In this document: one piece after another, positions 33,993 through 60,479 of the stretch
Layout of the letters: every line of letters begins with the position of its first letter
How positions within the stretch are numbered: the first letter of the stretch is position 1
IMG/VR virus record: IMGVR_UViG_3300006810_006497
Location: 1-64,000 of that record
Direction: 5' to 3' (one strand)
Length of the DNA stretch: 64,000 bases
Origin: a virus
Position numbers and translations under genes: made by a program
The notes under the pieces: generated by a model
The model's database searches: none
Seen by the model: only the letters and a program-made list of their open reading frames with translations
Told to the model about the DNA's origin: nothing

Positions 33993-35012
33993 TTATCCCT
34001 CGTTGGTCGCGTTAATTGCCGCTTGTTGCCCCGCTAATATAGCGTTGTTCATTTGACTCTGCATATTCATGCCCATTGCCATGGCATTCCTTTGAGCCAA
34101 CATCGTTTCCGATTGAATCGCTCGAAGATCGAATGTGATGGTGATGATGTCAACCACGCCTGTCGTTGGATTGGGCAACTGGTTCAATTGAACCCCTTTG
34201 CTGTGCTGAATGTCCTTATGGATCATCTCAAAGAACGGCTCGTATTTCAGCAGCGAATCAGGGGTGCTACGGTTCTGGGCCGTTGACCCTCGCATGAGCG
34301 ACTTCATACCTGGAACTTTCATAAACTTCGTACCTTTGCTCACGGGCTTAATCAAGAGTCCATCGTTTGCCATTTCATGTTCTTGGATGATGCTACGCAA
34401 CGTGTGGAAAATATGCAGATGTGCGGGGCAAAGGGTGCTATTCATCTCATCGCCGTGATCGCCATGGGTTCGAGCCAATGGCTTTCGAGCGTTGCCTGTT
34501 TCTTCATCAAACCAATAGATGTCAGCCAAAGACAAGCCAACTGACTCATCAACGATGTGAGCGTATGCATTGTCCCCTTCGAGGAAACGACGAATGTCAA
34601 CGCCACAACAAGCGCACTCATGAGCGGCGTTGTAGCGGTAAATCTTGAACAGTCCCAAGTTGTATGACGGGGGCTTCAATGCCTTACGGAGCATCTTGAT
34701 GTTCTGCTTTCGTGCTTTCTTAGGATTCTTTGGATTCGACTTGAGTTGGATCTCAACTGTTGGGATCAACTGCTCCTCTCCAATATCCCCTGTCGATCCT
34801 GCACTCGCCATCTCTGCACGTTGCTGAGTCTTCAACAACTCATATGACACGCCAGACTGCGTTGCGAGAACCTGCAACTGGTCATCGGTCATGCCTCGAA
34901 GGGTCATTCCGCCGCCCCACCCAGAGAAAGCGGCCATAGGGTTGAACGCCCGTGCATTCCACGCCATCAACCCTGCCAAGGTTGACAACATGATAAATGC
35001 TTTGAATCTCAC
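33993..35012 (-). CDS. Signal-peptide or anchored protein with HNH-like Cys/His site
   Basis: This 339-residue protein starts at a GTG overlapping the GTPase stop. Residues 1-22 (MRFKAFIMLSTLAGLMAWNA) read as a signal peptide or membrane anchor. Residues 133-198 show C133-x2-C136, then AHIV (H152), then N191 with C195-x2-H198 (MNSTLCPAHLHIFH). This order is that of an HNH/beta-beta-alpha-metal nuclease with zinc cysteines. The C-terminal 130 residues are of unknown type and end in a Met-rich helix. A pure zinc structural site is the alternative. Confidence 0.45.
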   Translation of the reverse strand: MRFKAFIMLSTLAGLMAWNARAFNPMAAFSGWGGGMTLRGMTDDQLQVLATQSGVSYELLKTQQRAEMASAGSTGDIGEEQLIPTVEIQLKSNPKNPKKARKQNIKMLRKALKPPSYNLGLFKIYRYNAAHECACCGVDIRRFLEGDNAYAHIVDESVGLSLADIYWFDEETGNARKPLARTHGDHGDEMNSTLCPAHLHIFHTLRSIIQEHEMANDGLLIKPVSKGTKFMKVPGMKSLMRGSTAQNRSTPDSLLKYEPFFEMIHKDIQHSKGVQLNQLPNPTTGVVDIITITFDLRAIQSETMLAQRNAMAMGMNMQSQMNNAILAGQQAAINATNEG

Positions 35013-35740
35013 AAAGACTGCAATAATTCAGTCAACGACTTCTCCACATTGATCCCGTGTTGCGATGAGATCGCTTTGATCTCCGCACGAATGCCCGCTC
35101 GACGGAGCCTTTTGAGGGACTCTCGAAACGGGGCCACGATGGGATGTTCCTTCTGCAAACCGTATTGCCACAGTTGTTCGGCTTGAGGATCCCACCAAAT
35201 GTCCATCTTGTTGATCATGAGGCAAAACAACCGAGGGGTGTACGATTTTGATGCCTTCCTCGCTTTTCGTGAGATCTTCTTGCTTACGTCCTTTTTGATG
35301 ATGTTGTCAACCAAATAGGTCAGCCCCGCCGCTGCATCGGCAGCAAACTGCGGCGAGGTCATTGCTCGATGATCGACCATGTAAATCACCAACTCTGCAT
35401 TTCGACCGAACATATCCTCCACCCACAGATTGCGGAACATATGGTCGCCAGCCAAATCGGTGGTAATCACGGGGGTTTTGTCCTTCTTGAAACGGATGCG
35501 CTTACGGGTGGCATTTGGTGCTTGATACCCTGTTGCGGTCGATGCTTTGGGGTGGGATGTGCGAAAATGCAGAGGGATGGCCTCAATGTCGCCAGGGACG
35601 GTGAGGTATTGATCGAGAGTCGTTTTTCCGACCAATGAGGGGCCATAGACCCCAACACGATACGGCTTTAGGACGCGATAAAGGGAATAAAGGGCTGATG
35701 TTGAAGCCATCAGCATATGGCCCGCAATGAGGGCCGACAT
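35009..35740 (-). CDS. Membrane-anchored Ras/Arf-like small GTPase
   Basis: This protein has 243 residues and starts after an AGGTGATC ribosome site. The N terminus (ALIAGHMLMASTSALYSLYR) is a likely membrane anchor. The G domain shows the P-loop GPSLVGKT (33-40), the switch II region TTDLAGDHM (DLAG at 95-98), the strand LVIYMVDHRA, and NKMD (177-180). The SAK-type G5 motif could be AISSQHG near the end. The order G1, G3, G4 with spacing near 60 and 80 fits TRAFAC small GTPases of the Arf/SRbeta/Ras kind. Viral small GTPases of this kind are unusual. It is in a run of membrane proteins (33104-36448). Confidence 0.75.
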   Translation of the reverse strand: MSALIAGHMLMASTSALYSLYRVLKPYRVGVYGPSLVGKTTLDQYLTVPGDIEAIPLHFRTSHPKASTATGYQAPNATRKRIRFKKDKTPVITTDLAGDHMFRNLWVEDMFGRNAELVIYMVDHRAMTSPQFAADAAAGLTYLVDNIIKKDVSKKISRKARKASKSYTPRLFCLMINKMDIWWDPQAEQLWQYGLQKEHPIVAPFRESLKRLRRAGIRAEIKAISSQHGINVEKSLTELLQSL

Positions 35741-35750
35741 CACCGATCAC

Positions 35751-36737: not shown

Positions 36738-37265
36738 ATGTGCATGAGCAATACGCCAACGCTTCTCGTTGCCGTGCAAACCCTGCGTTCCTACAACCAA
36801 GCATTGGCGGGAATGAACAATGACCCCACGGCCATTGAGAATTGGATTCGACGCTACGCAGAAGCCGATTCTCGATCAAGCACATTCCCAAAGGATGCGG
36901 CCATCGGCCTCCTTTCCTATTTGGGAAACCCCGTCTTTGCATCGAGCAACATCACCGCCGATCAACAGGCGTGGTCGGCTGAGATGGCGAGCGCAGAACA
37001 GATCATGCAACAGGAAAACAACTGGATAGGGCGTCAAACCGTTCAAAACAACGCTACAACCTTTGCACGTTTGTTTGGTTCGGATCTCGAATGGATTCAA
37101 CTCTATGCTCAGTCGAAGTCAATGACCGCCAACAACGGCTGGACAAACGAATACCTCATCAACATGGTCATCGCTGATCTGCGCGTGTGCAACGGATCTG
37201 GTGGCGCAGGTGCAATTCCTCACACGGCGATGAACCCATCGTCAAGCAACAATCAGTTGCCCTGA
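36738..37265 (+). CDS. Lone plus-strand gene within the leftward arm, unknown function
   Basis: This 175-residue helical protein (VQTLRSYNQALAGMNNDPTA, WIGRQTVQNNATTFARLFGS, EYLINMVIADLRVCNG) has a good ribosome site (AAGGAGG) and its own possible promoter. Its end overlaps the end of the convergent methyltransferase gene by 13 bases. The composition is natural for a soluble protein. No family is recognised; an early regulator is possible by its divergent place. Confidence 0.5.
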   Translation: MCMSNTPTLLVAVQTLRSYNQALAGMNNDPTAIENWIRRYAEADSRSSTFPKDAAIGLLSYLGNPVFASSNITADQQAWSAEMASAEQIMQQENNWIGRQTVQNNATTFARLFGSDLEWIQLYAQSKSMTANNGWTNEYLINMVIADLRVCNGSGGAGAIPHTAMNPSSSNNQLP

Positions 37266-38431
37266 CGCATCTTCTCCCAAGCATTTTGGAAAGCATCTTG
37301 ATCGATGTTTGCCATTCCCATCAACTCGCTCTTTTTTCCTCGAACAGCACCTTTGCCGCCGCTGGTTTCCTTTCGTTGGAGTTCATGAATGTCAAAGCCC
37401 ATATCGCTAATTGGGTCAACGATTTCGGGAGCAAATGAATTGAACACAACTGTTGGGAAACCGTGGCTTGCCAATCCTTCAATCAAAGCCAATGTTCGTT
37501 CTTGATCATCCATCGTAAAGAAGTCCAATGCGCCTTCTTCACCCATGTAGGGCGGATCGAGAATAAACGCATCTTTTGCGGGGTTCAACTCAATGTCGGA
37601 TTCGAGTTGTTCGTGCAACGGCCTATCTCGATATTCCCACCCCTGCATGGCTTCCGACCATGGGTCAAGTTCCCATCGACCTTTGCCTCCAAGCAACTTT
37701 TGAGGTCGGAACGTGTTGCCTGTCCCTGGTTTAAGGCGGTCTTTTTGGCCCTGCATCAAATCAAAATAAGCCGACTCAAACGATGGTTCGATTGGTTTAT
37801 TCCCTGTGAATCGCAATGAACCAGCCCATCGGTTGAACAGATTTGGGGTCTTAGGAGAATATCGCAACAAACCGTTCATCGACATATGCTGCAACACGAG
37901 GAAGAGTTGGTCTTTTCTTTGCCGCTCACGCTGACTGATGACGCCTTCTCCCTCTTTTCGTCGCAACTCATTAAACTCTTGACGCAATTCGTAAAACTTT
38001 GGCCCCATGAAGAACGGATCTCCGCCCATCTCATCAACGAGGCTTTGAGGAACAGTTCCCAAATCCATCATCTCACCTGTGTTTGGATTTGGCATCATCA
38101 CACTATCGCCCGCTTCATAGGTGAAGGTTTCTGGCTCAAACGACAAAGAGTCTGGATCGTTGATCAAACGCTGATGAAACGATGCCAAGTCTGGGTTGAT
38201 GTCCATGAGCAGAGCCTCTTGAGGCCGCATCCCCAAAGAAAGTCCCGCTGCTCCGCCAAACGGCTCAATGACTCGACGGTCTGGCATGATTTGCTTCAAT
38301 GCTCGACCAATGGCTTGGTATTGAGGATTGGCTTTGTTGCCTTGGATTTTGATGGCTGGAGGCAGAGATCCTCCTGTTTGCAACGCTCTCAAAGCCTTTC
38401 GATATTGAGGGTGCATCTTACGGAGTTCCAC
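37253..38431 (-). CDS. D12-class adenine-N6 DNA methyltransferase (Dam-like)
   Basis: This protein has 392 residues. The SAM site is VIEPFGGAAGLSLG (54-67) with LLMDINPDL following; the catalytic motif IV is FILDPPYMGEEG (near residue 295). The C terminus has the Dam-like pattern GFPTVVFNSFAPEIVDPIS. The N terminus lacks the F-xxx-W tag. The gene is last in the accessory unit and converges on the plus-strand gene. Likely role: methylating viral or host DNA to avoid restriction. Target site is unknown. Confidence 0.75.
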   Translation of the reverse strand: MELRKMHPQYRKALRALQTGGSLPPAIKIQGNKANPQYQAIGRALKQIMPDRRVIEPFGGAAGLSLGMRPQEALLMDINPDLASFHQRLINDPDSLSFEPETFTYEAGDSVMMPNPNTGEMMDLGTVPQSLVDEMGGDPFFMGPKFYELRQEFNELRRKEGEGVISQRERQRKDQLFLVLQHMSMNGLLRYSPKTPNLFNRWAGSLRFTGNKPIEPSFESAYFDLMQGQKDRLKPGTGNTFRPQKLLGGKGRWELDPWSEAMQGWEYRDRPLHEQLESDIELNPAKDAFILDPPYMGEEGALDFFTMDDQERTLALIEGLASHGFPTVVFNSFAPEIVDPISDMGFDIHELQRKETSGGKGAVRGKKSELMGMANIDQDAFQNAWEKMRQGN

Positions 38432-39443
38432 TCAGCATCACCTCCCATGATCGGCGGATGATGTCCCCTGTCATGGCCGCATCCCACAACTCCAACCCCG
38501 CTGAGGTCGAATCATTTGGATCAAAATACATCCCGTGAGTTCCCGTGGCGATGCCTCTCGTTAATGCAGGGATGGAATAATCGTTGCCAGCGGTCAATGA
38601 AAGAGGCACAGGGATGCCCTCTTGACGGTAGCCACCTGGTTCGGTATATTCGACATAGAGTTGTCCTTCTCGATCAGGGGCAATGTCTGTCCACGAAAGA
38701 GGAATCTGCAAAAGCGGGTCAACAGACCCCGACACTCCATGAGATCGTGCGGGACGCCATGGTTGGCCGAAGTCCTGTCGTAGTGGCAACCGTTGTTTTG
38801 GCTTCCACTTTTCTTTTGGCCCCAACGTGTTGTCGAGGATGTCGTACACCTTGTATCCAAATCGAGGGGCTTCTCCACCTGCGAAGGACAACGCAGCATC
38901 ACCGAATGGGTTGCGGCCCATCTGCAAATCGCTATGCATACCGAGGATGTCCAACGGTGATTCACCTGCGTACAATCGAGCCAACTCAGCGGGGTCGAGA
39001 TTGCCAGCCGTCCAAAGGTGAGCGGTTCGGTTGGCATTTCCACGTGCATCGGTGTTCGGTTGCTTTCGACCAAGCCAAGCATCAGCCTGTTTGTTTTCGT
39101 TTAGACGGAAGAACGGGTCTTTGAGAGGGAGCATATTGGCAATGCCCATGATCTGCTGGCCTCCTCGAAGAACGCTCAAGACTCCCGTATCTGGTCGGAT
39201 TTGACCAGTTGATTGAATCATGCCTGGTGAAATGTGAGGTGAATTGATGTCGATGTTGCGAAATGCCTCAATGGTGTGCGGCCTACCTACGGAAAACCCA
39301 CCCCGCATCTCACGAAGATCTCCTCCCTGCGTTTCAACTGGATAAGCCGTCAGCCCATCCATCGAAACAGTCCCTAAATCGATACGATCACGCTTGTTCC
39401 TCTGTTGGAGGAGTTGTTGCCAAGTGTCATCGAATACGCCCAT
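38418..39443 (-). CDS. Tagged protein of unknown function
   Basis: This 341-residue protein has the N terminus MGVFDDTWQQLLQQRNKRDR, with the tag F4/W8. The body is beta-rich with RPHTIEAFRNIDINSPHISP, GYKVYDILDNTLGPKEKWKP, GQLYVEYTEPGGYRQEGIPV and GTHGMYFDPNDSTSAGLELW. The body has some ART-like character (a VLSVLRGGQQ segment and the late GMYFDPND), but I cannot place it. It overlaps the methyltransferase gene by 14 bases. Confidence 0.5.
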   Translation of the reverse strand: MGVFDDTWQQLLQQRNKRDRIDLGTVSMDGLTAYPVETQGGDLREMRGGFSVGRPHTIEAFRNIDINSPHISPGMIQSTGQIRPDTGVLSVLRGGQQIMGIANMLPLKDPFFRLNENKQADAWLGRKQPNTDARGNANRTAHLWTAGNLDPAELARLYAGESPLDILGMHSDLQMGRNPFGDAALSFAGGEAPRFGYKVYDILDNTLGPKEKWKPKQRLPLRQDFGQPWRPARSHGVSGSVDPLLQIPLSWTDIAPDREGQLYVEYTEPGGYRQEGIPVPLSLTAGNDYSIPALTRGIATGTHGMYFDPNDSTSAGLELWDAAMTGDIIRRSWEVMLSGTP

Positions 39444-39452
39444 TTGAACACC

Positions 39453-40424
39453 TCAATGTTTGACATATCCAACATTTCCTTGTCCCGTGTCCCAACACGA
39501 GGAGCATCTGTTGCCTTCGCATGAGTTGATTGGATTTGTTGGATCGGATGCAGGGCAATAGTCCTCATCCAATGCACTTTGCCTAAACTGTGGTCGAGAA
39601 ATAACAGAGGACGTCAAAAGTTGAGGGAATTGCTCAAGCATATCAATGTGCCTTTGGGGAAGTGGTTCAATGCCTCTTTGTTCATTTATCTCGTTATCAG
39701 TTGTTTGATCAATCATTGGAAGGGAAAGCCGCAATGCCATGTTGCCAGGTAGTCCTCCTCTCGCTTGAACAACCTTGTTCGTGAGATCCCATTCTCGCGT
39801 AGGTAGCCAAAACATCGTATCGGGCAACGATTCAGCAATTGCCATCAAATAAGCCAAGTGTTCGGGAGAATCCAAATCGCCCGAATCATGCCAACGGAAG
39901 AATGGAAGTTGGTCTTGTGTTCTTGGGATTTGATTGACCATTGCAGATGCCCATCGTTGGGGGTCGTTTTTCAACGCAGAAAAGTTCCTCAATAGATGGC
40001 GTTGGACATTGTTAAGCGGATAATGTCCTTTATCGTGAGCATAGCATCCTTCACAAACCGAACCTTTGACCCTACGCAATTTTCCACCCCTCATGCACAT
40101 ATGCGTAGGGAGAGAATATGTGGCATTGGGCATTTTCTTAGGTTCCGAAAACCCCCCTCCAAGTGCTTCTTGGATTTCGTCTTTGTTCGTCCAAATGTCT
40201 TTCGCTTTCCAAGGAGCAATATCTCTTGGCCCCATGTCGAGGTCTGCGTCAATACGCTTCCGCCTTAACGCTGCAAACTCTCCAAGTGGATCCTCTTGAA
40301 GGTATCGAAAAGCGGTTTGATCATTCTTAGGGAACGCTTCTCTGCCAATGAGGTCATCCAAATTGAAGTTGTTTGGATCGAGGGCTTTGACCAGCAAATC
40401 CCATGCCTTTGCAAACACGTTCAT
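39453..40424 (-). CDS. Tagged gp88-like protein with Cys clusters
   Basis: This protein has 323 residues. The tag is MNVFAKAWDLLVKALDP (F4, W8). The body follows the phage Gene_product_88 pattern: a Cys motif CMRGGKLRR then CEGCYAHDKGHYP, RHLLRNFSALKNDP, then FFRWHDSGDLDSPEHLAYLM and MFWLPTREWDLTNK. A second cluster near the end (CEGNRCSSCWDTG) adds cysteines. Cys content suggests an Fe-S or zinc site. The family's activity is not established to my knowledge. Confidence 0.6.
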   Translation of the reverse strand: MNVFAKAWDLLVKALDPNNFNLDDLIGREAFPKNDQTAFRYLQEDPLGEFAALRRKRIDADLDMGPRDIAPWKAKDIWTNKDEIQEALGGGFSEPKKMPNATYSLPTHMCMRGGKLRRVKGSVCEGCYAHDKGHYPLNNVQRHLLRNFSALKNDPQRWASAMVNQIPRTQDQLPFFRWHDSGDLDSPEHLAYLMAIAESLPDTMFWLPTREWDLTNKVVQARGGLPGNMALRLSLPMIDQTTDNEINEQRGIEPLPQRHIDMLEQFPQLLTSSVISRPQFRQSALDEDYCPASDPTNPINSCEGNRCSSCWDTGQGNVGYVKH

Positions 40425-40429
40425 CGCGA

Positions 40430-40756
40430 TCAGTCCTTCCTTACCTTTTGGTGCAAGCGTCGAAGGGTTTCCGATTGAAGCGAATCGGTATCGCTGCCCT
40501 TTGGCCGTTCCGTTTTCTTCTTTTCATCACGGGGGACGCCTCGAACACGGTTCAGCAGGTTGCGAATCGACGAGTTGGTTGGCCCTCCTGTTTCAGGATC
40601 CTTAGTGGGTTTTGACTGTATCACGTTATCAACGGCAGCGTCGATGTCCTCCTCCATCTCAGGAGAAGGCTTGTAGGGCCAGCCCATCCGCCGATGGTAT
40701 TCATCACGGGAAGACTTCATCATTTGCCACGTCTTCTCAAACGAGGCATCCGCCAT
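40430..40756 (-). CDS. Small tagged helical protein
   Basis: This protein has 108 residues. The tag is MADASFEKTWQMMKSSRDEY (F6, W10, K14). The rest is charged and helical or disordered (EMEEDIDAAVDNVIQSKPTK) with a basic end (ETLRRLHQKVRKD). With no clear catalytic domain, it may be a small internal protein like those in T4 heads. Sits between the gp88-like and ART-like genes. Confidence 0.5.
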   Translation of the reverse strand: MADASFEKTWQMMKSSRDEYHRRMGWPYKPSPEMEEDIDAAVDNVIQSKPTKDPETGGPTNSSIRNLLNRVRGVPRDEKKKTERPKGSDTDSLQSETLRRLHQKVRKD

Positions 40757-40804
40757 GCGGATCGGTAAAGAGTCGTTTGTTTTGAAAGTGTCGTTATGAA
40801 TGCC

Positions 40805-41317
40805 CTATATGTCCATCAAAATGTTCTCAAGCATTCGACGCCAATCGTAATCGGTTTGATTTGTTCGAGCAGGGAACCTTTGAGCCACTTCAATGTCTTG
40901 CGGGGGTATTGTGTGCGGAGTCCTCATTTGGGTGAAGTCCTCTTGACCGTAATCGGGGATGTAATCACCTTGGACGCGTAGCAGAACTGGTTGTTTCATC
41001 CCAACACCGTATCCCGCCAATTCATGCAAATCATGTGGCAATGCCCATGACCACTTCCCCTCAAACAGACGATTTGGATTATCATCTCCAAAAAGACGTG
41101 ATGCGTGTTGTTTCATTTGATCGAGGAACGCTGTTTCATCGTAGTCATCAAATTGTTCTTCTTGGAGCATCATCGCTTCAGGGAGGTTTTGATGTGGCAG
41201 ATCTCCCGTTGGCTTCAAGCCATCTCTCATGATTGAGTCAAGGTTCTCCGATTCGGTGATGTGATATGGCATTTTCAACAACTCCCAAGTCGTTTCAAAG
41301 GCCCCCAAAGCAATCAC
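40805..41317 (-). CDS. Tagged ADP-ribosyltransferase-like protein
   Basis: This protein has 170 residues from the GTG at 41317; a TTG at 41308 would put the tag at the very N terminus (GAFETTWELLKMP). The body begins YHITESENLDSIMRDGLKPT, the opening of many ART-fold proteins (aromatic-H, then I-x-x-G-L). Later strands include PVLLRV and TPHTIPPQDIEVAQRF. The domain order (tag then ART) is the same as at 46761. Its substrate is unknown. RNA phosphotransferase-like activity in the same fold is an alternative. Confidence 0.55.
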   Translation of the reverse strand: MIALGAFETTWELLKMPYHITESENLDSIMRDGLKPTGDLPHQNLPEAMMLQEEQFDDYDETAFLDQMKQHASRLFGDDNPNRLFEGKWSWALPHDLHELAGYGVGMKQPVLLRVQGDYIPDYGQEDFTQMRTPHTIPPQDIEVAQRFPARTNQTDYDWRRMLENILMDI

Positions 41318-41586
41318 CTAAAATCATTCAAGGTTCTTTGAGCGTTGCCAAGTCTTGGCAGGGGGATGTTGAATGCATCGCCGCCAATGGCTGCACCAAC
41401 TGCGGGGACGAGAACATTTCCAAGTGCCGTATCAATCACCTTCTGTCGCTTTCCTGTCGTGTAGGTGTTGTGGCTCATTCCCTTTATGGGGGTGAGGTCA
41501 TAGGTTGGATCGAAGGTTTGAGCCATAAGGAACTCTTCATCGGAAAACGGTCGAAGGTACATCACCGTTGGTCGATTGTGAGTCAT
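41314..41586 (-). CDS. Small untagged protein in the accessory block
   Basis: This protein has 90 residues when started at the ATG in the ATGA overlap at 41586. It has a possible membrane-active segment (NVLVPAVGAAIGGDAFNI) after a polar N terminus. It sits between the C5 methyltransferase and an ART-like gene and might assist either. No family is recognised. Confidence 0.45.
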   Translation of the reverse strand: MTHNRPTVMYLRPFSDEEFLMAQTFDPTYDLTPIKGMSHNTYTTGKRQKVIDTALGNVLVPAVGAAIGGDAFNIPLPRLGNAQRTLNDFR

Positions 41587-42659
41587 CCCTGAAACATGGC
41601 GGTTTGCAGGGTACGAATGAGAAAATGAACGAGGCTGTTTGTTGCGAGGGCCTTGGCATCGTCCCATGTTGAGCCGCCTCGACCAGGGACGGTTGCACCA
41701 CTCAACGAGATTTGGGGGCCAGCCCCCAATTCTCGAACTGCACTTTCAGTCAAGTTGCCTCGACTGAGCAACTCATCAAGCCAATATCGGACATCTCCTT
41801 GGTTTTCTTCCCATTCTCTCTCTAAATGAGGCATGAAGTCAAGAATTGAACGGCTTGGCAAGCGTCCAGCAATTGGATTCCTTCTTGTTCGGTCATAATG
41901 CGTTGGTCGCTTCTGCCAACCCTCGCCAATGATCATGCGGTTTCGAGTTGATGGTGCGCCGTAGTCAATTGCATTCATTCGTGGATTTTGCTTAACCGTA
42001 CCCATCTCGCCTTTTCCTCGCAACATTGCAATAACCCGATTCCCAAAATCTCGATCAAGGGCGGTTTCGCCCTCGAAAAGAAGGTGTTGATTATTAAGGA
42101 GATCAGGTATCACCTCTTTGGCTTGCTCAACGTGCCAAGAATTGAGGTCAATGTCTGGGTGCTTTTGCATTTGTTGAGCGGTGTAAAATGCATTCAACAC
42201 AGGGGGTATCCCTCCTAACGCACGTTCTGCCCGTTCTTCTGCTGTCAACCCCCCCGTTCCAGCGGATGTCAACAGTTGACACGGGGGAGATGCGCCAAAG
42301 TGTCCACGGCGACCCCCCAAAGCATCTGCATAGACCTCCACTTGATCGTCGGGGTGGGCTTGGCCTTGTTCGGTTCCAAGCCATGCGGTCATGGTCTTTT
42401 CTTCGTAGGGTCTTCGGACGGCGTTGACTGCATCCCATGCATCCACCCCCATAGCCGTAGGGATGCCCATCCGTCGCATTCCAGAAGATGTTCCGCCAAC
42501 CCCCGCTTGTTCATGAATACCTGCGATGTCATCTCGCATCGGCAATTGAGGATACATGATGTCATGAAGACGTTTCATTTCCTCTTTATCTTCTGGAGTC
42601 ATGGCCTTCCACAGCATATCGGAGAAGGCAAACTCGAATAAAGGCTCACTCAATTCCAC
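41583..42659 (-). CDS. Cytosine-C5 DNA methyltransferase
   Basis: This protein has 358 residues from GTG 42659, or 356 from TTG 42653. The SAM region is GVGGTSSGMRRMGIPTAMGV (53-72, with DAW following), replacing the usual FxGxGG motif. The catalytic loop is ASPPCQLLTSAG with Cys127. The target-end motif AIDYGAPSTRNRMII corresponds to the conserved YGxPQxRxR. The N terminus (LFEFAFSDMLWKAMTP) resembles the tag but has Leu where Trp is expected, so I do not count it. It lies next to HMG-CoA lyase. Probable role in evading restriction or host gene control. Confidence 0.75.
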   Translation of the reverse strand: MELSEPLFEFAFSDMLWKAMTPEDKEEMKRLHDIMYPQLPMRDDIAGIHEQAGVGGTSSGMRRMGIPTAMGVDAWDAVNAVRRPYEEKTMTAWLGTEQGQAHPDDQVEVYADALGGRRGHFGASPPCQLLTSAGTGGLTAEERAERALGGIPPVLNAFYTAQQMQKHPDIDLNSWHVEQAKEVIPDLLNNQHLLFEGETALDRDFGNRVIAMLRGKGEMGTVKQNPRMNAIDYGAPSTRNRMIIGEGWQKRPTHYDRTRRNPIAGRLPSRSILDFMPHLEREWEENQGDVRYWLDELLSRGNLTESAVRELGAGPQISLSGATVPGRGGSTWDDAKALATNSLVHFLIRTLQTAMFQG

Positions 42660-43519
42660 ACCGCCTTAAATCGATTCTTGGTTTCGTTGTATTTATTCTT
42701 GGCTGCAACTTTCAACGTAGGATTCTTGATTTTGTGTGCAAGTCTTCGAGCCGCTTTGAGGTCGGAGGACTTGACACCACAGTCAATACCCTCTTTCTCG
42801 CACCACTTGACGAGATCCTCGGTGGCAAGGTTTGCTCCAGACCCCTCAACGAAGGGGCAACCGCCAAGACCACCGATGCTGGAATCAAACTCTCGAACTC
42901 CCTTAAGATAACCAGTTGACACGTTGTTCATCAAGTGTTTGCCATGATGGAGGTGCAATGCCAGATCGTGGGTGAAATCGTTTGCCGTATCGATTCCCGC
43001 AGCGATGTCAAACGGAGTCGCCGTGCCTTTCGTGTCGCATAGCACGATTTTCGTACCAAAGCGGAGTCCATGCTGGACGGCCACGGCGAGATCCTCTTGA
43101 CTGGCATCAAACGCCTCCGACAGGTACACTCGAACAGACTCTCGTGGCACACCTTGGAGGCACTTCTCATAATTCTCAAGGATCCGCTCCAACTTCAAAC
43201 CGTAGTTGGCGATGTTGAAGGACTCAATTGGTGAGAAGAAAATGTTGAACAAACTCATGCCGCAACTGACGGCACGATCAAGTCCACGTTGATTTGGCAC
43301 GAGGACGGACAGTCCCCGCTTATCGTCAAAGGTTTCGCACACTTCTTCGGCGTCGGCCATGTTGGGAACGGCCTTGGGATGAACAAAGGATGCGATTTCG
43401 ATGTGATCGAGGCCAGCATCCCTCAACAACTGGATGAGATGGATTTTGTCATCGGTGGACGGGACGTGCGGCAGATTTTGAAGTCCATCGCGAGGGCCGA
43501 CTTCAAAGATCCGAATCAT
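42650..43519 (-). CDS. Hydroxymethylglutaryl-CoA lyase (HMGL-like, DRE-TIM family)
   Basis: This 289-residue protein is slightly shorter than cellular enzymes. It has the family start FEVGPRDGLQN (R10, D11), then HIEIASFVHPKAVPNMAD (E41), the HxH metal ligands in ALHLHHG (H189, H191), and the active-site loop GGLGGCPFVEGSGANLATED (C221), which is diagnostic of HMG-CoA lyase. The reaction splits 3-hydroxy-3-methylglutaryl-CoA into acetyl-CoA and acetoacetate in leucine breakdown. All recognised catalytic residues are present. There is no N-terminal tag, so it is probably made in the infected cell. A related lyase with another acyl-CoA is possible. Confidence 0.82.
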   Translation of the reverse strand: MIRIFEVGPRDGLQNLPHVPSTDDKIHLIQLLRDAGLDHIEIASFVHPKAVPNMADAEEVCETFDDKRGLSVLVPNQRGLDRAVSCGMSLFNIFFSPIESFNIANYGLKLERILENYEKCLQGVPRESVRVYLSEAFDASQEDLAVAVQHGLRFGTKIVLCDTKGTATPFDIAAGIDTANDFTHDLALHLHHGKHLMNNVSTGYLKGVREFDSSIGGLGGCPFVEGSGANLATEDLVKWCEKEGIDCGVKSSDLKAARRLAHKIKNPTLKVAAKNKYNETKNRFKAVWN

Positions 43520-43522
43520 GCC

Positions 43523-44296
43523 TTAATCCTCCATTCCTTGATGAGGCCCCAACAATCCAGCCCTTCTCATCAAAATGACTGCTGTTTCGCGTTCAATTGG
43601 GTGTTTGAGGCTCCTGTACCATGGTGCTGTTGCACCCTCCTCTATGGCCTCTTCGAGTTCTCGTTGCATTTGATCGCGCCATGCCGTCCCAAGGTGCGGC
43701 ATCATCTCTGCTGTCAACACATCTCGATGAGGCAACTCTCCTTTCAAACGCTTAATGGCATCACGCATATGGGCAACTTGTTCTTCGGGGAAATAAGTGT
43801 CAGCACTTGTTTCGATGGTTGAGGGGCCATAATCGATTGGCTCATCCTCTCCATAATCGGCTATCATACGTTCCAACGCCGCGTTAATTTTTGCCTCGAC
43901 CTCTTCGTCGGACAATTGCTCTTGTGGCTCCTGCATCTCATCGAAAATGAAACTGTCTTTGTTTCCTCCTTGATCCGACATGACGTAAAAATCCTGATCA
44001 GGTACGTTTCGTGTGCGCCAAATTGCTGGACGGGTTTGTCTTAAGGGGACTCGATTTCGATCCATATCGATTAGATGCCCTCCAGGGACTCCTCCTTCAA
44101 TGTCAGTAGGGAGATCTCCAACAGCAGAACCAAACAGGGCGTAGGCCAAAGCGGTATCAAAATCAGCAGTTGCATACCTCACATTGTCGTCCTTATCTCC
44201 GCCCGAATAAATGACATCATAGGGGATCACCTCCCCATGCTCGTTGTAAATGGGGGCTTTGGTGATCGAATCCCAAGCGGCCTCAAACAAACTCAT
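43523..44296 (-). CDS. Tagged ART-like protein of the YSGGD type (paralogue of 47366)
   Basis: This protein has 257 residues. The tag is MSLFEAAWDSITKAP (F4, W8). The next segment YDVIYSGGDKDDNVRYATAD, then FDTALAYALFGSAVGDLP, is shared with the protein at 47366 and resembles ART folds (strand, loop with Arg, then an xDxxxAxxYA helix). The rest is acidic helix (EEVEAKINAALERMIADYGE) and basic C terminus. It has conserved YSGGD and YALxGSA blocks. ART activity is inferred from fold resemblance only. Confidence 0.45.
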   Translation of the reverse strand: MSLFEAAWDSITKAPIYNEHGEVIPYDVIYSGGDKDDNVRYATADFDTALAYALFGSAVGDLPTDIEGGVPGGHLIDMDRNRVPLRQTRPAIWRTRNVPDQDFYVMSDQGGNKDSFIFDEMQEPQEQLSDEEVEAKINAALERMIADYGEDEPIDYGPSTIETSADTYFPEEQVAHMRDAIKRLKGELPHRDVLTAEMMPHLGTAWRDQMQRELEEAIEEGATAPWYRSLKHPIERETAVILMRRAGLLGPHQGMED

Positions 44297-51727: not shown

Positions 51728-52376
51728 TGACAACATTTTTCCCAAAAATTGTCCGTGGAGCGTATGGCGTCTGCCGCCCGCTGGCGGCAAAAAAAAAAAC
51801 GTGTCCAGACATACCCCGCCGCAAAAACGCCCAGTCGCAGACTGGGCGGGGGGCTGGCGGTCGGTCGAGGCGGTCGGTGTGGCGCACCCAGTCGGCCCGT
51901 GGCACGATCAAACCGTGGTGCTGCGCCCCTGTGGGGATGACTGGGCGGGTGGCACACCCGCCCCGCCGCACCCAGTCTGCGTGGTCGGTCGAGGGGGCGT
52001 TCTGTGGCGTTGCAGGGCGTGTGGCGATGGCTCACCCAGTCTGTGGCTACATCACCACAAACGGGGCGGTTCTGCGCCCCTCCAGCGTCCTCGACTGGGT
52101 TCATCCCCACATCGGCCCCACCCAGTCCCAACGAGGGCCTCACAGGGCGTTTCCGTGGCTACATCGGCACACCCAGTCCCCCGCCACCGCCACCCACCCA
52201 CCGTGGACACCAAAAATCGACGCCCTGCGCCCCTATCTGGACACCAAATGCACAGATTTGTCCGAGATCGTGGGGCCTCGACAACGCACACCGACCCTGC
52301 CCGCAGGGTGGCCGCAGCACCCTGTTTTTGGTGTGGATATGCGGTGCTTGAGGGTGGGAGATCGAGGGCGAAATTA
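51728..52376. promoter_or_regulatory. GC-rich repeat region, possible origin or divergent control region
   Basis: No gene is supported here. The few long open frames are Pro/Arg/His-rich, as expected from GC-rich non-coding DNA. The region has an 11-A tract (51789-51799) after a hairpin (51773-51788), a perfect inverted repeat GCCCAGTC-GCA-GACTGGGC (51829-51847), and further GACTGGG/CCCAGTC copies up to 52178. It separates the diverging arms. Confidence 0.5.
51829..52178. repeat. CCCAGTC iterons in both orientations
   Basis: CCCAGTC, mostly within CACCCAGTC, occurs at 51830, 51887, 51971, 52035, 52121 and 52172. GACTGGG occurs at 51840, 51939 and 52093. Spacing varies from 3 to about 85 bases. 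Other shared phrases are GTGGCTACATC (two copies) and CTGCGCCCCT (three copies). Confidence 0.75.
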
Positions 52377-52535
52377 GACACGATAGACACTTTGGACATG
52401 GTGGTAAGGGAATGGACAGAAAGAACACGACAGAGAGAGAACATTTTCACCACCACTTCACCACCATTCTCCCCCTATCGTCCCTGTCCTTTGTCCTCCT
52501 TTTCTTTCGATCATGTCGAAAGTGTCCATCGTGTC
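52377..52535. repeat. Long imperfect inverted repeat upstream of the rightward arm
   Basis: The arms at 52377-52400 and 52512-52535 are 24 bases each with two mismatches. The core, in the right arm, is AAAGTGTCCATCGTGTC. A third, related copy, GTTTGTGTCTATCCTGTC, is at 52606-52623. The 111-bp centre is pyrimidine-rich with CACCAC runs. Likely protein-binding sites for rightward control or replication. Confidence 0.7.
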
Positions 52536-52618
52536 TTTCATTATGCAAAATCCTGGGCGCAGTCATGCGTTTTCGTTCCTCGACATTGGTGTCCCAAACC
52601 GTGTCGTTTGTGTCTATC

Positions 52619-52657
52619 CTGTCCGACGCCTTTAGAAAGGCACACCCCTTCGGACAG
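52619..52657. promoter_or_regulatory. Nested hairpin just before the rightward genes
   Basis: CTGTCCGA (52619-52626) pairs with TCGGACAG (52650-52657), enclosing GCCTTT-AG-AAAGGC (52628-52641). It overlaps the third GTGTC-type repeat. It could be an operator or RNA leader structure. Confidence 0.4.
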
Positions 52658-52710
52658 GGGGAGGGGGGCGCACACTACCCCCGTTGAAACCCAATATGGA
52701 GATGAGCAAA

Positions 52711-53256
52711 ATGCAGAACCGAAGCACATACCGAAGCAGCGATTTGACGAGCGTCAAGGCCGTCATTGAAACCCACTTGAAAGGCAAGACGAAGGACACG
52801 AAGATCATCCTCCGCCTCTCGTTGAACGAGGGCGGTTTGACTGTCCCCTCGAAGAAGCAACTGTTGGCCCCCCTGCCGATGGCCTCCAAGAAGCAACTGT
52901 TCGACGCCCTTGAAGCGATTGACGAAGAAGCCACGCTGGACAGCACCGACCTCTCTGGAGGCGGCTTTGAAGCCCTCAGCAACGGCCAGAAGGGATACCT
53001 CCGCCGTCAAGTCGGCAAAATGGCGACCCACGAGCCTCGATACCGTGTCCATTGGAGGGACTTGGGCGAGTTGTACGGCTCCCGCCGATACGCCCTCTCT
53101 GTCATGGTGCTGCCAGCCCGCATCACCACGGAATGGAAGCGATGGTGTCGCCACATGGATGCCGCTTGGAAGGCCCACAACGCTGCTGTGAGAGAGAAGC
53201 ACAAGGCACACATGGCTGACCTTGCCCACGACGACACCGTAGGGGGTGCTGAATGA
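52711..53256 (+). CDS. First gene of the rightward arm, unknown
   Basis: This protein has 181 residues from the ATG at 52711, which has GGAG 9 bases upstream; other in-frame starts are 52684 (TTG), 52696 and 52702. It is basic, helical, and rich in Lys/Arg (KAVIETHLKGKTKDTKIILR, NGQKGYLRRQVGKMATHEPR, WCRHMDAAWKAHNAAVREKH). It could bind DNA. As the first gene after the repeat region it is a candidate regulator or origin-binding protein. No family is recognised. Confidence 0.55.
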   Translation: MQNRSTYRSSDLTSVKAVIETHLKGKTKDTKIILRLSLNEGGLTVPSKKQLLAPLPMASKKQLFDALEAIDEEATLDSTDLSGGGFEALSNGQKGYLRRQVGKMATHEPRYRVHWRDLGELYGSRRYALSVMVLPARITTEWKRWCRHMDAAWKAHNAAVREKHKAHMADLAHDDTVGGAE

Positions 53257-53663
53257 TGTCAGCCCCTGTTGGTTCGATCTCCTTCATCTGCAATGCCTGT
53301 TTCAAGGGCTGGAGCCACGCCCACAGCACCATCCACGCTGGCGGCGTGTTCTCCGTTGACGCCACCCAGTTCTGGGGCCTCTTCAACAACCGCATCACCA
53401 ACGCCATGTTCGAGGACGATGACAACGCTGTGTTCAACGCCATGGGCCTCGGCAGCCCGATCTGCCGATACCATTGGATGAACGATGTCAAGACGGCTCT
53501 CGAAGCCCATCGCCGCAGCCCCACCATGCCCTTTGAGGAGCGCATGAAGAAGAAGGGAATCACGTTTTTCCACGCCTTCTGGATGCACCAGTTGAAGGCC
53601 GACGCTGGCTTCATGGCTGATGCTCCCTTCACCATCGCAGAGGTTGAGGAGGTGGCTCAATGA
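53253..53663 (+). CDS. Small unknown protein of the early-type operon
   Basis: This 136-residue protein starts SAPVGSISFICNACFKGWSH, with a C-x2-C pair and nearby His that could make part of a metal site. It ends IAEVEEVAQ, a C terminus dictated by the embedded GAGGAGGTG ribosome site of the next gene. No family is recognised. Confidence 0.5.
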   Translation: MMSAPVGSISFICNACFKGWSHAHSTIHAGGVFSVDATQFWGLFNNRITNAMFEDDDNAVFNAMGLGSPICRYHWMNDVKTALEAHRRSPTMPFEERMKKKGITFFHAFWMHQLKADAGFMADAPFTIAEVEEVAQ

Positions 53664-53980
53664 GCGACGATTTCTCCCCCATCCTCCTCGACCGCCGCAT
53701 CACCAAGCGGGACATCTCCGACATGGCCCTCCTGTTCAGTCAGTTGGCCGATTCTGTTCGGTTCGATGACCGCCTTCAAGCGGCCACCTTCACCATGATG
53801 CGGGATGTCGTTTCGACGCTGGCCGATCACGCTCCCCGCCACCTGCCGACCCCAGATTGGCACGACGATGAGATGTGCTGTGGGTTCCTGTGGGGCCAAT
53901 TCGCTGATGTGTCCACCCTCGTCAACTGCTGCCCGCTGTGCGGTAAATCCGTTGTGAAGCCAGAGGGGTGGTCTGCATGA
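53660..53980 (+). CDS. Zinc-ribbon protein, paralogue of the next gene
   Basis: This protein has 106 residues. The last 40 (DWHDDEMCCGFLWGQFADVS then CCPLCGKSV) form a Cys-rich ribbon with a CC-x(n)-CPxC layout. The next gene has the same ending (WHDEELCCGIIWAQVERFSN then CPCCGDRL). The two are tandem duplicates with diverged N termini. Function unknown. Confidence 0.5.
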   Translation: MSDDFSPILLDRRITKRDISDMALLFSQLADSVRFDDRLQAATFTMMRDVVSTLADHAPRHLPTPDWHDDEMCCGFLWGQFADVSTLVNCCPLCGKSVVKPEGWSA

Positions 53981-54267
53981 GCGACGACGCCTCTTGGAAC
54001 GCCACCGTTCGCCTTGGTGCATGGAGCGGCAGGGTCGCTCTCCCCAAGGCCCTCTTCCCCACCGCAGAGGGTGCTGTCAACACCGTCCTCCGTGCTGGCC
54101 TCGCTGCCGTCGAGGACGCCAACCCTCGCCCTGCCCCCCTGTGGCACGATGAGGAGTTGTGCTGCGGCATCATCTGGGCGCAGGTTGAACGCTTCTCCAA
54201 CATCGTCAAGCATTGTCCGTGTTGTGGCGACCGCCTCTCCTACATCCCCAAGGAGGCGTTGGAATGA
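53977..54267 (+). CDS. Zinc-ribbon protein, paralogue of the preceding gene
   Basis: This protein has 96 residues from the ATG in the ATGA overlap (53977). The body ends in the same CC-x(n)-CPCCG ribbon as the previous gene. It is translated just before the helicase and overlaps its start. Confidence 0.5.
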   Translation: MSDDASWNATVRLGAWSGRVALPKALFPTAEGAVNTVLRAGLAAVEDANPRPAPLWHDEELCCGIIWAQVERFSNIVKHCPCCGDRLSYIPKEALE

Positions 54268-57200
54268 GCGGCCTCGATCTCTGGCCTTGGAACGGCTCGA
54301 CCGTTCGCACCACCCCCGTCGCTGAACCCCGCTTCGTGGTGTTCACCCGCTGCAACTCCGATGTCAAGTGCATTGGCATCCACAGCACCCGTGATGACAT
54401 GATCTCACACATCGCTTCGCTGGAGGGGGATGTCGTGCCGTTCGGATTCACGTCCTCATCGGCCCTCAGCCTGTCCACCTTTGAGCATGGGACTGACCGC
54501 TTCTTCCCTGCCGCCAGCGGAGGAGAGTCAGCCTCGTGGGGCATCATCCCTGCCTCCGACTTCATCGATCAAGTGGCTGGATGCGACGACCCTTCGTTGC
54601 CGTATCCTCAAGCCCTCCTCAACTTCATCATCCCTCCCGTTGACCGCAACGGGAACCCGTGGAGCCGCCAGCAACGAGCCGCCAACGAGGAGAAGGCGTG
54701 GAAGGTCATCACAGGGACTGCTCGCATCGCTGTCGGTGCTGTGGCAGGTTCTGGTAAGTCCTCGCTGGTCAAGGGCATGGTCGAGGCCGTCGCTCGCTGG
54801 AACCCCACCATTGAGGTGTCCATCACGGCGTTCAACACCCACATCGCCAAGGATGCCATGGCCGACCTCAAGCACCTCGCCAAGGTGTATGGCCTCCGTG
54901 CCAAGATTCTCGGCGGCTCGAACACCGTCAACGCTGGTGGACACGCCATGAACCGTGCCAAGGCAGCGGCAGAGGGCTTCACCGTGCCGAAGGACGCCAA
55001 CCTCAGCGGCAAGGATGACCCTTACCGCATCCTCCCTCGCATGGTCTTCTCTGGGGCCTTGGGCGACCCTGCCTACGGCATCGACGCTCGCACCCTCGTC
55101 ATCGCTGCTGGTGCGCTGAATGTCAAGACCACCTCCCACGCCTTCAACGATCTCACCCGTGGCCTCCAGTCCGTCTGCACCATGCTGATGAACGAGGGCT
55201 TCGTTCCTCGCTCCATGGCGACCCCTGTGGTCGATGGGTATGTCGTCCCCTCAGTCGAGGACGAGGGCATGAACAACGACGAGATTCAAGAGGTCGTGGG
55301 CATCCTCCAGCGGGTCGGAAAGGACCAGGGATTGGATGACAATCCAGTCGTGTCCATCGGCCTCCCTGTCGTTGCTCGACTCGCCATCACCGTCCTCGCT
55401 CTGCGGGTGCAGACGGCCTTCATCCGTGCCAAGCACCGCCCGTCCTGTGGCGAGGCCGACTGGATGAACGCCATCGTCCCTGCGAAGTCCTCCAACAACC
55501 GCTGGCTGGACGCTGGAACCATCAAGGCCCTCAACAACCACAGGGACGCCTCGAAGATCACAGCGCAACGCTACGCCATCCTCTCCACCGCCAACGTCCT
55601 CTTCCCTCCAGCGGGGAAGACCACCAAGAGCGTCGGCTCCAAGTCCTTCGCCACCAACGCCACCACCAAGGCCGTTGTGAAGATGGTCGGTGATGACATC
55701 GCCTTGACCTTCGAGAACGATGGGCAGAAGGCCAAGTTGGATGGGGTCTGGATTGGCCGTCAATTCGGCAAGGCTGGAACCTACAAGGTGGACGGCATGA
55801 AGGTCGGCTCCATGGCTCCATTCAGCGGTGCGAAGGGATACCGTGTCGTCAAGCCCAAGCACCTCGACACCGTTCTCAGCGTCCTCGCTGAGGTGTTCAA
55901 GGAGGGCGAGGTGGACGTTCGTTTGGACGGCGTTGACCTGCCGTCCGACGACGACCTCGCTGAGGTTGAGTCGCAGGGCGTTTGGTATTGGTCGATGCCC
56001 GACCAGATTTACCTGCCCCACGCCCTCGATCTCCAGTTGCCTGAGCATGAGAAGGCCCGCTGCATGATGATCGATGAGGTTCAAGACCTCAGCGTCCTCA
56101 AGGCCAACCTCGTGTGGAAACTCTGCACCGATGACGCCCACATCACCATCGTTGGGGACACCTCCCAAGCGATTTACCTGTTCGCTGGAGCGTCCTCGAC
56201 GGCCTTCCACGACAACGCTGAGGCCATCGGTGCGAAGTGGTTCCCCCAGTCCGTCTGCTGGCGTGGGACGGCCATGGTCGCCGCCTCTGCCCGTGTTGCC
56301 TGTGCTGATGCCCTCGCCATGGTGAAGCGTCGTTATCCCAACGAGGACTACACGACCTGCAACTACCACAACCACTTCTCCCCTGCCCACCCTGCCGTGG
56401 CCGATCAATTCGCCCACCTCAACTGGTCAACGGGAGCGTTGCCGATGGTCATCAACGGTGAGTCCGTGGTGGGCTTCGTCGAGAACGCCCGCACCCTCCT
56501 TGGCGAGGACACCACCTTCGGCCTCCTGTGCCGCCTCAAGCGTCCTCTGCCCGACTACATCAAGCGACTCCTCAAGGCTGGCATTCCTGTGTCCACGCCC
56601 TCTGGGAAGGACGGCCTCGTGAACCAAGCGTTCAAGGCCACCGCAGAGGCTCCACGGACGGACTCCAAAATCACCGAGGACGGCTGGCCTGTCAAGGCCC
56701 TGTCCCGCCTTGGATTGGGCTGGAAGGACGCTCCCCTTCGCAACTTCTCGCTCCGCATCGCCATCCAAGTGATTGAGGAGTTGAAGAAGCACACCATGCT
56801 CAAGTGGACGGACTTCCACGGCGGCGATGCCAAGCAACTCGCCACCTGCCCCAACTTCGAGGAGGCCATGGCAGCCATCGATCTCATTGAGGCGTTCACC
56901 ACGCTGTTCTTTGAGCGTGTTTCCAAGGACGACATCCGTGCCACCCCCAAGGACATCAGCATCGCCAAGGGCCTCCGTGATTGGGTCGAGAACACCCTCT
57001 TCGCTGAGAAGGGCGGCTCTGCCGTTCACATCTCCACCATCCACCGCTACAAGGGCGACGAGGCCGATGTGATGTTCCTCATTGACCGCATCGTCAACCC
57101 CTCCCCTGATTCCGACAAGCCGTTCGTGTCGTGCTTCATGTCGGAGCGTTCGATGGAGGCTTCGTTCGAGTCTGCGATTGGCGAGGTCAACAACACCTAC

Positions 57201-57665
57201 GTCGCTTGGACTCGTGCCAAGAAGTGGAATGTCATCGTTGACGAGTCGGTTGATTTCTATGCCGACCTCAAGGCCACGATGACCAAGGCCATTGAGGGCG
57301 ACTACGAGGCCGTTCTGGAGGCTCCACGCTCTGCTGAGGCTCCGACCCCCGTCGAGGACGCTGAGGACGCCTCCAGCGGCCTTGAGCGATGTTGTGATGA
57401 GGACTGCAACCACGGAACCGACACCGCAGGTGCTGTCATCCTCGATCTTGACGACACCCGCACCTGCGCTGGCTGTGGAGGCCACCTCTGCCGTGTCCGT
57501 GATGACCAAGGCAGCGTCTGCGTCATCCGCTCCTGTGGGACGCCCACAGGCCATTCCTTCGTGGACGCTCTGGAGAACCCTCCAGCCGACCCCACCGCCG
57601 ACTACGATGAGATTCTCTGCACCGCTTGCTCCGACGCAGCCCGTGCTGAGGAGGTGAACCAATGA
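54264..57665 (+). CDS. UvrD/Rep-family superfamily 1 helicase with zinc-binding C terminus
   Basis: This protein has 1133 residues, started at the ATG in the ATGA overlap at 54264. Motifs are Walker A GAVAGSGKSSLVKG (about 158-171), motif II MIDEVQDL (near 602), motif III GDTSQAIYLFAG (near 631), motif V ISTIHRYKGDEADVMFL (near 925) and motif VI YVAWTRAK (near 979). It is larger than UvrD (about 720) through N-terminal and central insertions. C-terminal Cys/His clusters (ERCCDEDCNHG, CAGCGGHLC, CTACSDAAR) form zinc sites. It should unwind 3'-5' and act in replication or recombination. It is the only recognised replication enzyme in the window. Confidence 0.88.
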   Translation: MSGLDLWPWNGSTVRTTPVAEPRFVVFTRCNSDVKCIGIHSTRDDMISHIASLEGDVVPFGFTSSSALSLSTFEHGTDRFFPAASGGESASWGIIPASDFIDQVAGCDDPSLPYPQALLNFIIPPVDRNGNPWSRQQRAANEEKAWKVITGTARIAVGAVAGSGKSSLVKGMVEAVARWNPTIEVSITAFNTHIAKDAMADLKHLAKVYGLRAKILGGSNTVNAGGHAMNRAKAAAEGFTVPKDANLSGKDDPYRILPRMVFSGALGDPAYGIDARTLVIAAGALNVKTTSHAFNDLTRGLQSVCTMLMNEGFVPRSMATPVVDGYVVPSVEDEGMNNDEIQEVVGILQRVGKDQGLDDNPVVSIGLPVVARLAITVLALRVQTAFIRAKHRPSCGEADWMNAIVPAKSSNNRWLDAGTIKALNNHRDASKITAQRYAILSTANVLFPPAGKTTKSVGSKSFATNATTKAVVKMVGDDIALTFENDGQKAKLDGVWIGRQFGKAGTYKVDGMKVGSMAPFSGAKGYRVVKPKHLDTVLSVLAEVFKEGEVDVRLDGVDLPSDDDLAEVESQGVWYWSMPDQIYLPHALDLQLPEHEKARCMMIDEVQDLSVLKANLVWKLCTDDAHITIVGDTSQAIYLFAGASSTAFHDNAEAIGAKWFPQSVCWRGTAMVAASARVACADALAMVKRRYPNEDYTTCNYHNHFSPAHPAVADQFAHLNWSTGALPMVINGESVVGFVENARTLLGEDTTFGLLCRLKRPLPDYIKRLLKAGIPVSTPSGKDGLVNQAFKATAEAPRTDSKITEDGWPVKALSRLGLGWKDAPLRNFSLRIAIQVIEELKKHTMLKWTDFHGGDAKQLATCPNFEEAMAAIDLIEAFTTLFFERVSKDDIRATPKDISIAKGLRDWVENTLFAEKGGSAVHISTIHRYKGDEADVMFLIDRIVNPSPDSDKPFVSCFMSERSMEASFESAIGEVNNTYVAWTRAKKWNVIVDESVDFYADLKATMTKAIEGDYEAVLEAPRSAEAPTPVEDAEDASSGLERCCDEDCNHGTDTAGAVILDLDDTRTCAGCGGHLCRVRDDQGSVCVIRSCGTPTGHSFVDALENPPADPTADYDEILCTACSDAARAEEVNQ

Positions 57666-58114
57666 ACACGATTACGATTGAAGTTGAAGGCTTGATGAAC
57701 GACGATGACAGGATGGAGGAGTTTCTCCAATACCGCCCCAAGGGGGGCCAATGGCCCGAAGGGTTCCTGTACCGAGAATACTCCATCGAGGACGGCCACT
57801 ACGCATGGGCTTCGGCTCGTGTCGTTGAGATCACCATCCCCTTGACCCGTCAAGCGAACGTCCCCTCCGATGTTCTGCCGTTCGACGAGTTGATGTATCA
57901 GCGAGGGCAGCAACAGGCCACTTGGACGAAGAGAGGCGCACCACCATGGCCTCAGTTGATCGATGCCATCAACGAGGCTCTTGATGACGATGACGCCTGT
58001 GAAGGGCAGGGCATGGAGGTGGGCGCAGCCCCGCTTTGGTACGCGACCTCGAACAGTTGGCCTCGGCTCCTTTGGGACGCTCGCCTCATCCCTGTTGAGG
58101 AGGTGGCTGAATGA
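57662..58114 (+). CDS. Small acidic protein, unknown
   Basis: This 150-residue protein has a beta-rich N terminus (NTITIEVEGLMNDDDRMEEF), then QYRPKGGQWPEGFLYREYS, and an acidic segment. The C terminus ends PVEEVAE under the GAGGAGGTG site. No motif or family is recognised. Confidence 0.5.
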   Translation: MNTITIEVEGLMNDDDRMEEFLQYRPKGGQWPEGFLYREYSIEDGHYAWASARVVEITIPLTRQANVPSDVLPFDELMYQRGQQQATWTKRGAPPWPQLIDAINEALDDDDACEGQGMEVGAAPLWYATSNSWPRLLWDARLIPVEEVAE

Positions 58115-59260: not shown

Positions 59261-59270
59261 GGTGATTGAC

Positions 59271-60475: not shown

Positions 60476-60479
60476 GAAC

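What the first reader, a model, noticed from the sequence alone, without database searches (positions are those of the whole stretch)
42650..43519. A virus-encoded HMG-CoA lyase
The VGPRDGLQN start, HxH ligands and GGCPFVEGSGANLATED loop point to an intact HMG-CoA lyase. I know of no common viral example. It could release acetyl-CoA and acetoacetate from host leucine catabolism or drain HMG-CoA from mevalonate and archaeal lipid synthesis. The latter would alter isoprenoid supply. It is untagged, so it is probably made during infection.
Basis: partly seen in the sequence, partly recalled or inferred. Interest (0 to 1): 0.85.

Follow-up and report, generated by a model that had tools for sequence, protein, structure and literature searches.

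The report
HMG-CoA lyase in marine archaeal virus
A tailed virus of marine archaea carries an apparently intact gene for HMG-CoA lyase, an enzyme that splits a central metabolite into acetyl-CoA and acetoacetate; viruses of this kind were already known to carry it, but the gene belongs to a larger, virus-only family than the reports I found describe.

Summary
The ORF at 42650-43519 (-) is real: 289 aa, start supported by homologues, dN/dS about 0.07. Sequence and predicted fold are those of HMG-CoA lyase (HMGL), not homocitrate or isopropylmalate synthase; the best 14 PDB fold matches are all HMGLs. Residues aligned to human R41, D42, E72, R165, D204, H233, H235, C266 and N275 are invariant in 84 viral homologues (two are truncated before R41/D42). 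The virus is an archaeal tailed virus with a group II chaperonin and Druskaviridae-like capsid and portal. It is not the first viral case: the ICTV Aoguangviridae profile and Xu et al. 2023 already list HMGL in magroviruses. Added here: at least 151 IMG/VR loci encode relatives; sampled viral proteins form one 100/100-supported clade apart from all cellular HMGLs sampled (best cellular identity 39%); the gene occurs in PolB-bearing magrovirus-like records and in this window's PolB-less lineage, in 7 of 8 records of at least 90 kb found by their capsid gene, without leucine-catabolic carboxylase or HMG-CoA reductase genes. Most likely it cleaves host HMG-CoA to acetyl-CoA and acetoacetate. Whether that feeds on leucine or drains mevalonate is unresolved, and a remodelled loop after HxH leaves a shifted substrate possible.

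The parts
42650..43519 (-). HMG-CoA lyase-like protein, 289 aa (DRE-TIM metallolyase, single TIM-barrel domain)
   Evidence: PF00682 1.6e-24; NF004283 194.9 bits, below the 246 cut-off; 1ydo 9e-41; AlphaFold2 pLDDT 94.2, best PDB fold hits are human and bacterial HMGL, TM 0.86
43487..43492 (-). codons for R10-D11 (human R41-D42; D42 is a metal ligand)
   Evidence: aligned with human and B. subtilis HMGL; 82 of 82 viral proteins that reach these columns
42947..42955 (-). codons for H189-L190-H191 (human H233, H235; metal ligands / catalytic His)
   Evidence: 84 of 84 viral, 77 of 77 cellular rows
42857..42859 (-). codon for C221 (human C266, catalytic Cys of the glycine-rich loop)
   Evidence: 84 of 84 viral, 77 of 77 cellular rows (cellular rows were chosen to hold a GGxP loop); role of the cysteine from knowledge of the family
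42935..42946 (-). codons 192-195, remodelled segment after HxH (HGKH instead of the cellular [DN]-T-x-G), shorter than in cells
   Evidence: cellular column 237 is T in 73 of 77 rows, G/K/R/N in the viral rows
43523..44296 (-). upstream neighbour, tagged (MSLFEAAWDSITKA), ends 3 bases before the HMGL start; unknown function
41583..42659 (-). downstream neighbour overlapping the HMGL end by 10 bases; DNA cytosine methyltransferase-like (SPPCQ; weak phrog_363 match)

Best explanation
The gene encodes a metal-dependent HMG-CoA lyase of the DRE-TIM metallolyase superfamily, kept as an auxiliary metabolic gene in a lineage of tailed viruses of marine archaea (probably Poseidoniales / Marine Group II). 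It is made in the infected cell from an operon of accessory genes and cleaves HMG-CoA to acetyl-CoA and acetoacetate: divalent metal held by D11, H189, H191 and N230 (human D42, H233, H235, N275), R10 (R41) polarising the thioester carbonyl, C221 (C266) in the mobile loop. One enzyme suffices, because archaea make HMG-CoA for isoprenoids and may also make it from leucine, so the virus needs no companion gene. Net effect: acetyl-CoA released for infection, with loss of mevalonate precursor as consequence or purpose. Shown here: gene, purifying selection, predicted fold, active-site residues, monophyletic viral family. Inferred: substrate, expression, role.
For: HMGL is the best match by profile, sequence (1ydo 9.1e-41 against 6.2e-6 for homocitrate synthase) and fold (TM 0.81-0.86 for HMGLs, at most 0.77 for synthases). 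Columns of human R41, D42, E72, N138, R165, D204, H233, H235, C266 and N275 are invariant in the viral rows, while many cellular homologues vary at E72 and R165. dN/dS about 0.07. 7 of 8 records of at least 90 kb found by their capsid gene carry it. The closest cellular relative lies in an operon with carboxyltransferase, enoyl-CoA hydratase and biotin carboxylase genes, i.e. leucine degradation (read by eye).
Against: Score is under the curated NF004283 cut-off (194.9 against 246). The segment after HxH, conserved in cells, is changed in the viral proteins, and 23 of 84 viral rows have N at human E279, so specificity may differ. No activity data. Host HMGL and leucine-pathway content could not be examined.
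Confidence: 0.68

Rival explanations
1. The enzyme completes leucine degradation: it pulls host leucine carbon to acetyl-CoA and acetoacetate for energy during infection (the published reading of Xu et al. 2023). This is a version of the best explanation that names the source of HMG-CoA.
For: A close cellular relative sits in a leucine-type operon; Poseidoniales are described as proteolytic with many amino-acid degradation genes (PMC6461757); published assignment (PMC10160649).
Against: No carboxyltransferase-family gene (PF01039) in 18 HMGL-bearing virus records; whether the host has the upstream leucine steps was not testable here.
Confidence: 0.38
2. The enzyme drains HMG-CoA from the mevalonate pathway, lowering archaeal isoprenoid lipid synthesis and redirecting carbon to the virus (the other source of HMG-CoA).
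For: The gene occurs in viruses of archaea, whose lipids need mevalonate (established knowledge); it acts without detected partner genes; it is retained by 7 of 8 long records.
Against: Nothing in the genome context points to lipids specifically; no HMG-CoA reductase is encoded.
Confidence: 0.25
3. A neofunctionalised HMGL: same metal and cysteine chemistry, but another 3-hydroxy-3-alkyl-acyl-CoA (such as citramalyl-CoA) or a non-CoA substrate.
For: Long stem to the viral clade (0.94 in the quick tree), remodelled segment after HxH and altered glycine loop in most viral members, score below the curated cut-off.
Against: R165, E72 and N138 columns match human HMGCL and are invariant in viruses; fold nearest to true HMGLs.
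Confidence: 0.2
4. The gene was acquired recently from the Marine Group II host.
For: Usual route for auxiliary metabolic genes.
Against: All 80 loci confirmed in the genome-contig scan (one genome per species, archaea included) are bacterial by title, and the best identity is 39%. Viral proteins form one clade with 100/100 support. But the scan sees only genomes sharing two short motifs, so a divergent Poseidoniales HMGL could be missed.
Confidence: 0.1
5. Not an HMGL but a homocitrate/isopropylmalate synthase or DmpG-type aldolase.
For: Same superfamily; PF00682 covers all.
Against: GGCP cysteine loop present, no LeuA-type C-terminal domains, all scores far lower.
Confidence: 0.02

Closest known systems
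HMG-CoA lyase of Aoguangviridae / magroviruses (Poseidoniales virus YSH_150918, ICTV profile PMC10768690; magrovirus AMG list, PMC10160649)
   Same: Same annotated enzyme, in marine tailed archaeal viruses; PolB-bearing IMG/VR records that carry it (magrovirus-like) have homologues in the same viral clade as the window protein
   Different: The window record and its close relatives, including records of 90-97 kb, have no PolB, so the lineage is not a typical magrovirus; YSH_150918 itself was not held and not compared
Human mitochondrial HMGCL (2cw6, 3mp3, 3mp5) and B. subtilis HMG-CoA lyase (1ydo)
   Same: Fold (TM 0.86) and all aligned catalytic residues
   Different: About 35% identity in the fold alignment; segment after HxH and glycine loop altered; C-terminus differs
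Klosneuvirus KNV1 HMGL-like protein (A0A1V0SKU2)
   Same: Virus-encoded HMGL fold, TM 0.84
   Different: Giant virus of eukaryotes, 27% identity; not tested in the tree

Membership tests
HMG-CoA lyase (NF004283 / EC 4.1.3.4) | Curated profile score at or above 246 bits | tested here: not met
   194.9 bits, E=1.7e-57; still the best of all profiles by far
HMG-CoA lyase (NF004283 / EC 4.1.3.4) | Metal ligands D42, H233, H235, N275 (human numbering) | tested here: met
   D11, H189, H191, N230; invariant in viral rows that reach them
HMG-CoA lyase (NF004283 / EC 4.1.3.4) | Catalytic Cys266 in the GLGGCP glycine loop | tested here: met
   C221, 84 of 84 viral rows
HMG-CoA lyase (NF004283 / EC 4.1.3.4) | Fold nearest to solved HMGLs rather than other DRE-TIM enzymes | tested here: met
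   Best 14 PDB hits are HMGL chains
HMG-CoA lyase (NF004283 / EC 4.1.3.4) | [DN]-T-x-G segment after HxH (conserved in cells; not known to me to define the activity) | tested here: not met
   HxH is followed by H-G-K-H in the window; the viral rows deviate
HMG-CoA lyase (NF004283 / EC 4.1.3.4) | Activity on (S)-HMG-CoA | not testable with these tools
   needs an assay
PF00682 HMGL-like | Score above gathering cut-off | tested here: met
   87.2 against 29 bits
Homocitrate / isopropylmalate synthase | Profile above cut-off and extra C-terminal domains | tested here: not met
   38.7 bits against 484.75, others lower; 289 aa, barrel plus C-terminal helices only
Magrovirales (the virus) | Virus-encoded family B DNA polymerase | tested here: not met
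   No PF00136 in G000 or its close relatives of 54-97 kb; the window record (67,917 bases) may be incomplete

The most novel reading that the evidence does not exclude
A virus-specific HMGL clade, nearly fixed in several lineages of marine archaeal tailed viruses, acts as an enzymatic counterpart of a statin: it destroys HMG-CoA to stop archaeal isoprenoid lipid synthesis in the infected cell, with a substrate loop tuned for that purpose.
Probability: 0.15. Interest if true: 0.75.

Novelty: new member of a known kind. Interest (0 to 1): 0.36.

Why it matters
Marine Group II archaea are among the most abundant plankton. A metabolic gene that many lineages of their viruses keep under strong selection suggests that acetyl-CoA or isoprenoid flux is a real control point in infection of archaea. 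The enzyme is small, single-domain and should be easy to assay, so the question is directly testable.

Tried and rejected
Phage-collection hits (Acinetobacter 'phage' MD-2021a, a fecal 'Bacteriophage sp.') look like bacterial DNA: the first lies next to a CoA-transferase and a catalase and is all but identical to the solved A. baumannii HMGL 6nds. ICTV exemplars ON649702 and PP497040 are not held, and three key papers are not in the library. A conserved pathway partner of HMGL was sought by clustering neighbours in 84 loci: the recurring neighbours I could recognise are virion, packaging, tagged or unassigned genes, not metabolic ones. Homocitrate-synthase identity rejected. Four cellular rows that were extracted badly or too gappy (L193, L051, L061, L093) were dropped or repaired before the final tree.

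Full report
OBSERVATION. The ORF at 42650-43519 on the minus strand is 289 aa with an ATG start. A GGAGG lies 8 bases before the ATG, and the ATG follows the preceding stop by 3 bases; the next gene overlaps its end by 10 bases, so it reads as part of an operon. Homologues with 74-88% identity keep the same start and length, and pairwise dN/dS is about 0.065-0.08 where dS is not saturated.

IDENTITY. Pfam gives only PF00682. Among NCBIfam profiles the HMG-CoA lyase model NF004283 is far ahead (1.7e-57; next 6.3e-10), but the score, 194.9 bits, is under its cut-off of 246. In the PDB the best sequence matches are HMGLs, 9e-41 for 1ydo, against 6e-6 for homocitrate synthase. An AlphaFold2 model built on 51 homologues has mean pLDDT 94.2, and the first 14 fold matches in the PDB are all HMGLs, TM 0.81-0.86 by query length; synthases and aldolases of the same superfamily follow at 0.63-0.77. 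In an alignment of 84 viral and 77 cellular rows, the columns of human E72, N138, R165, D204, H233, H235, C266 and N275 are invariant in the viral rows, and R41 and D42 in the 82 that reach that far; many cellular homologues differ at E72 or R165. Residue roles are from general knowledge of human HMGCL. Two regions differ from cells: the segment after HxH, and the GASGN part of the glycine loop in most viral rows. 23 of 84 viral rows have N at E279.

THE VIRUS. The record is an IMG/VR virus of 67,917 bases. Its capsid and portal proteins are about 30-33% identical to those of Haloarcula tailed viruses. Just outside the window, at 64247-65680, it encodes a group II chaperonin nearest to archaeal thermosomes. 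Nishimura et al. 2017 describe thermosome-bearing tailed viruses of Marine Group II (PMC5332604). PolB, part of the replication module in the ICTV profiles of magroviruses, is absent here and in close relatives of 54-97 kb but present in six of the more distant HMGL-bearing records. A Poseidoniales host is therefore likely but inferred.

THE FAMILY. At least 151 IMG/VR loci encode relatives; the best 80 are 41-88% identical. The scan of one genome per bacterial and archaeal species returned 80 relatives, all bacterial by title, best 39%; it sees only genomes sharing short motifs with the viral proteins. In a tree of 45 viral and 40 cellular sequences, the viral ones form one clade with 100/100 support; the nearest cellular sequences by path are bacterial and mitochondrial HMGLs, not the haloarchaeal ones sampled. 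The best cellular relative is in an operon with carboxyltransferase, enoyl-CoA hydratase and biotin carboxylase genes, as expected for leucine degradation. Of the records of at least 90 kb sampled by their capsid gene, 7 of 8 carry HMGL. The gene sits in different places: next to terminase and portal in 15 of 84 loci, inside a large-protein (probably tail) block in 9, in accessory regions in most others. No virus record tested (18) had PF01039 or HMG-CoA reductase.

WHAT IS KNOWN. [quoted passage not shown] 2023 list HMGCL 'involving in leucine degradation' in magroviruses (PMC10160649). So viral HMGL in marine archaeal viruses is not new. What I did not find in the held library is the monophyly and depth of the viral clade, its near-fixation in the capsid-defined lineage, or its presence in the PolB-less lineage; papers not held may say so.

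MECHANISM. The most probable reaction is cleavage of HMG-CoA to acetyl-CoA and acetoacetate. The source of HMG-CoA, leucine or the mevalonate pathway, cannot be settled from sequence; the lack of partner genes is compatible with both. A changed substrate is possible because of the remodelled loop.

VERDICT.

Noticed in passing
window 38418-51699 (-): Most consecutive genes begin with a peptide like M..F..AWD(S/L)(I/L).K (e.g. 43523-44296, 44293-45702, 47366-48109, 48106-48918, 50594-51271). A strict form occurs in 21 of 1688 ORFs of 84 related loci against 0.58 expected from shuffles. It may be a capsid-targeting or virion-packaging signal.
   Followed up: partly
L010-L020, between terminase (cluster 10) and portal (cluster 11): HMGL sits in the packaging module next to a protein (cluster 13) that looks by eye like a homing endonuclease, which would suggest how the gene moves between viral genomes.
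   Followed up: no
window 39453-40424 (-): Tagged protein with a PF17338 GP88 domain; function in an archaeal virus unclear.
   Followed up: no
window 33993-35743 (-): A GTPase-like protein (weak MMR_HSR1) and its neighbour are conserved in 40 and 44 of 84 HMGL-bearing loci, candidate lineage hallmarks.
   Followed up: no
window 37253-38431, 48915-50132 and 41583-42659 (-): Three DNA methyltransferase-like genes (two D12 adenine type, one cytosine-like with SPPCQ) within 13 kb.
   Followed up: no
G000 64247-65680 (+), outside the window: Virus-encoded group II chaperonin (thermosome type).
   Followed up: partly
window 52000-62000: GC rises from about 50% to 58-62% around the point where gene direction changes to the plus strand.
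   Followed up: no
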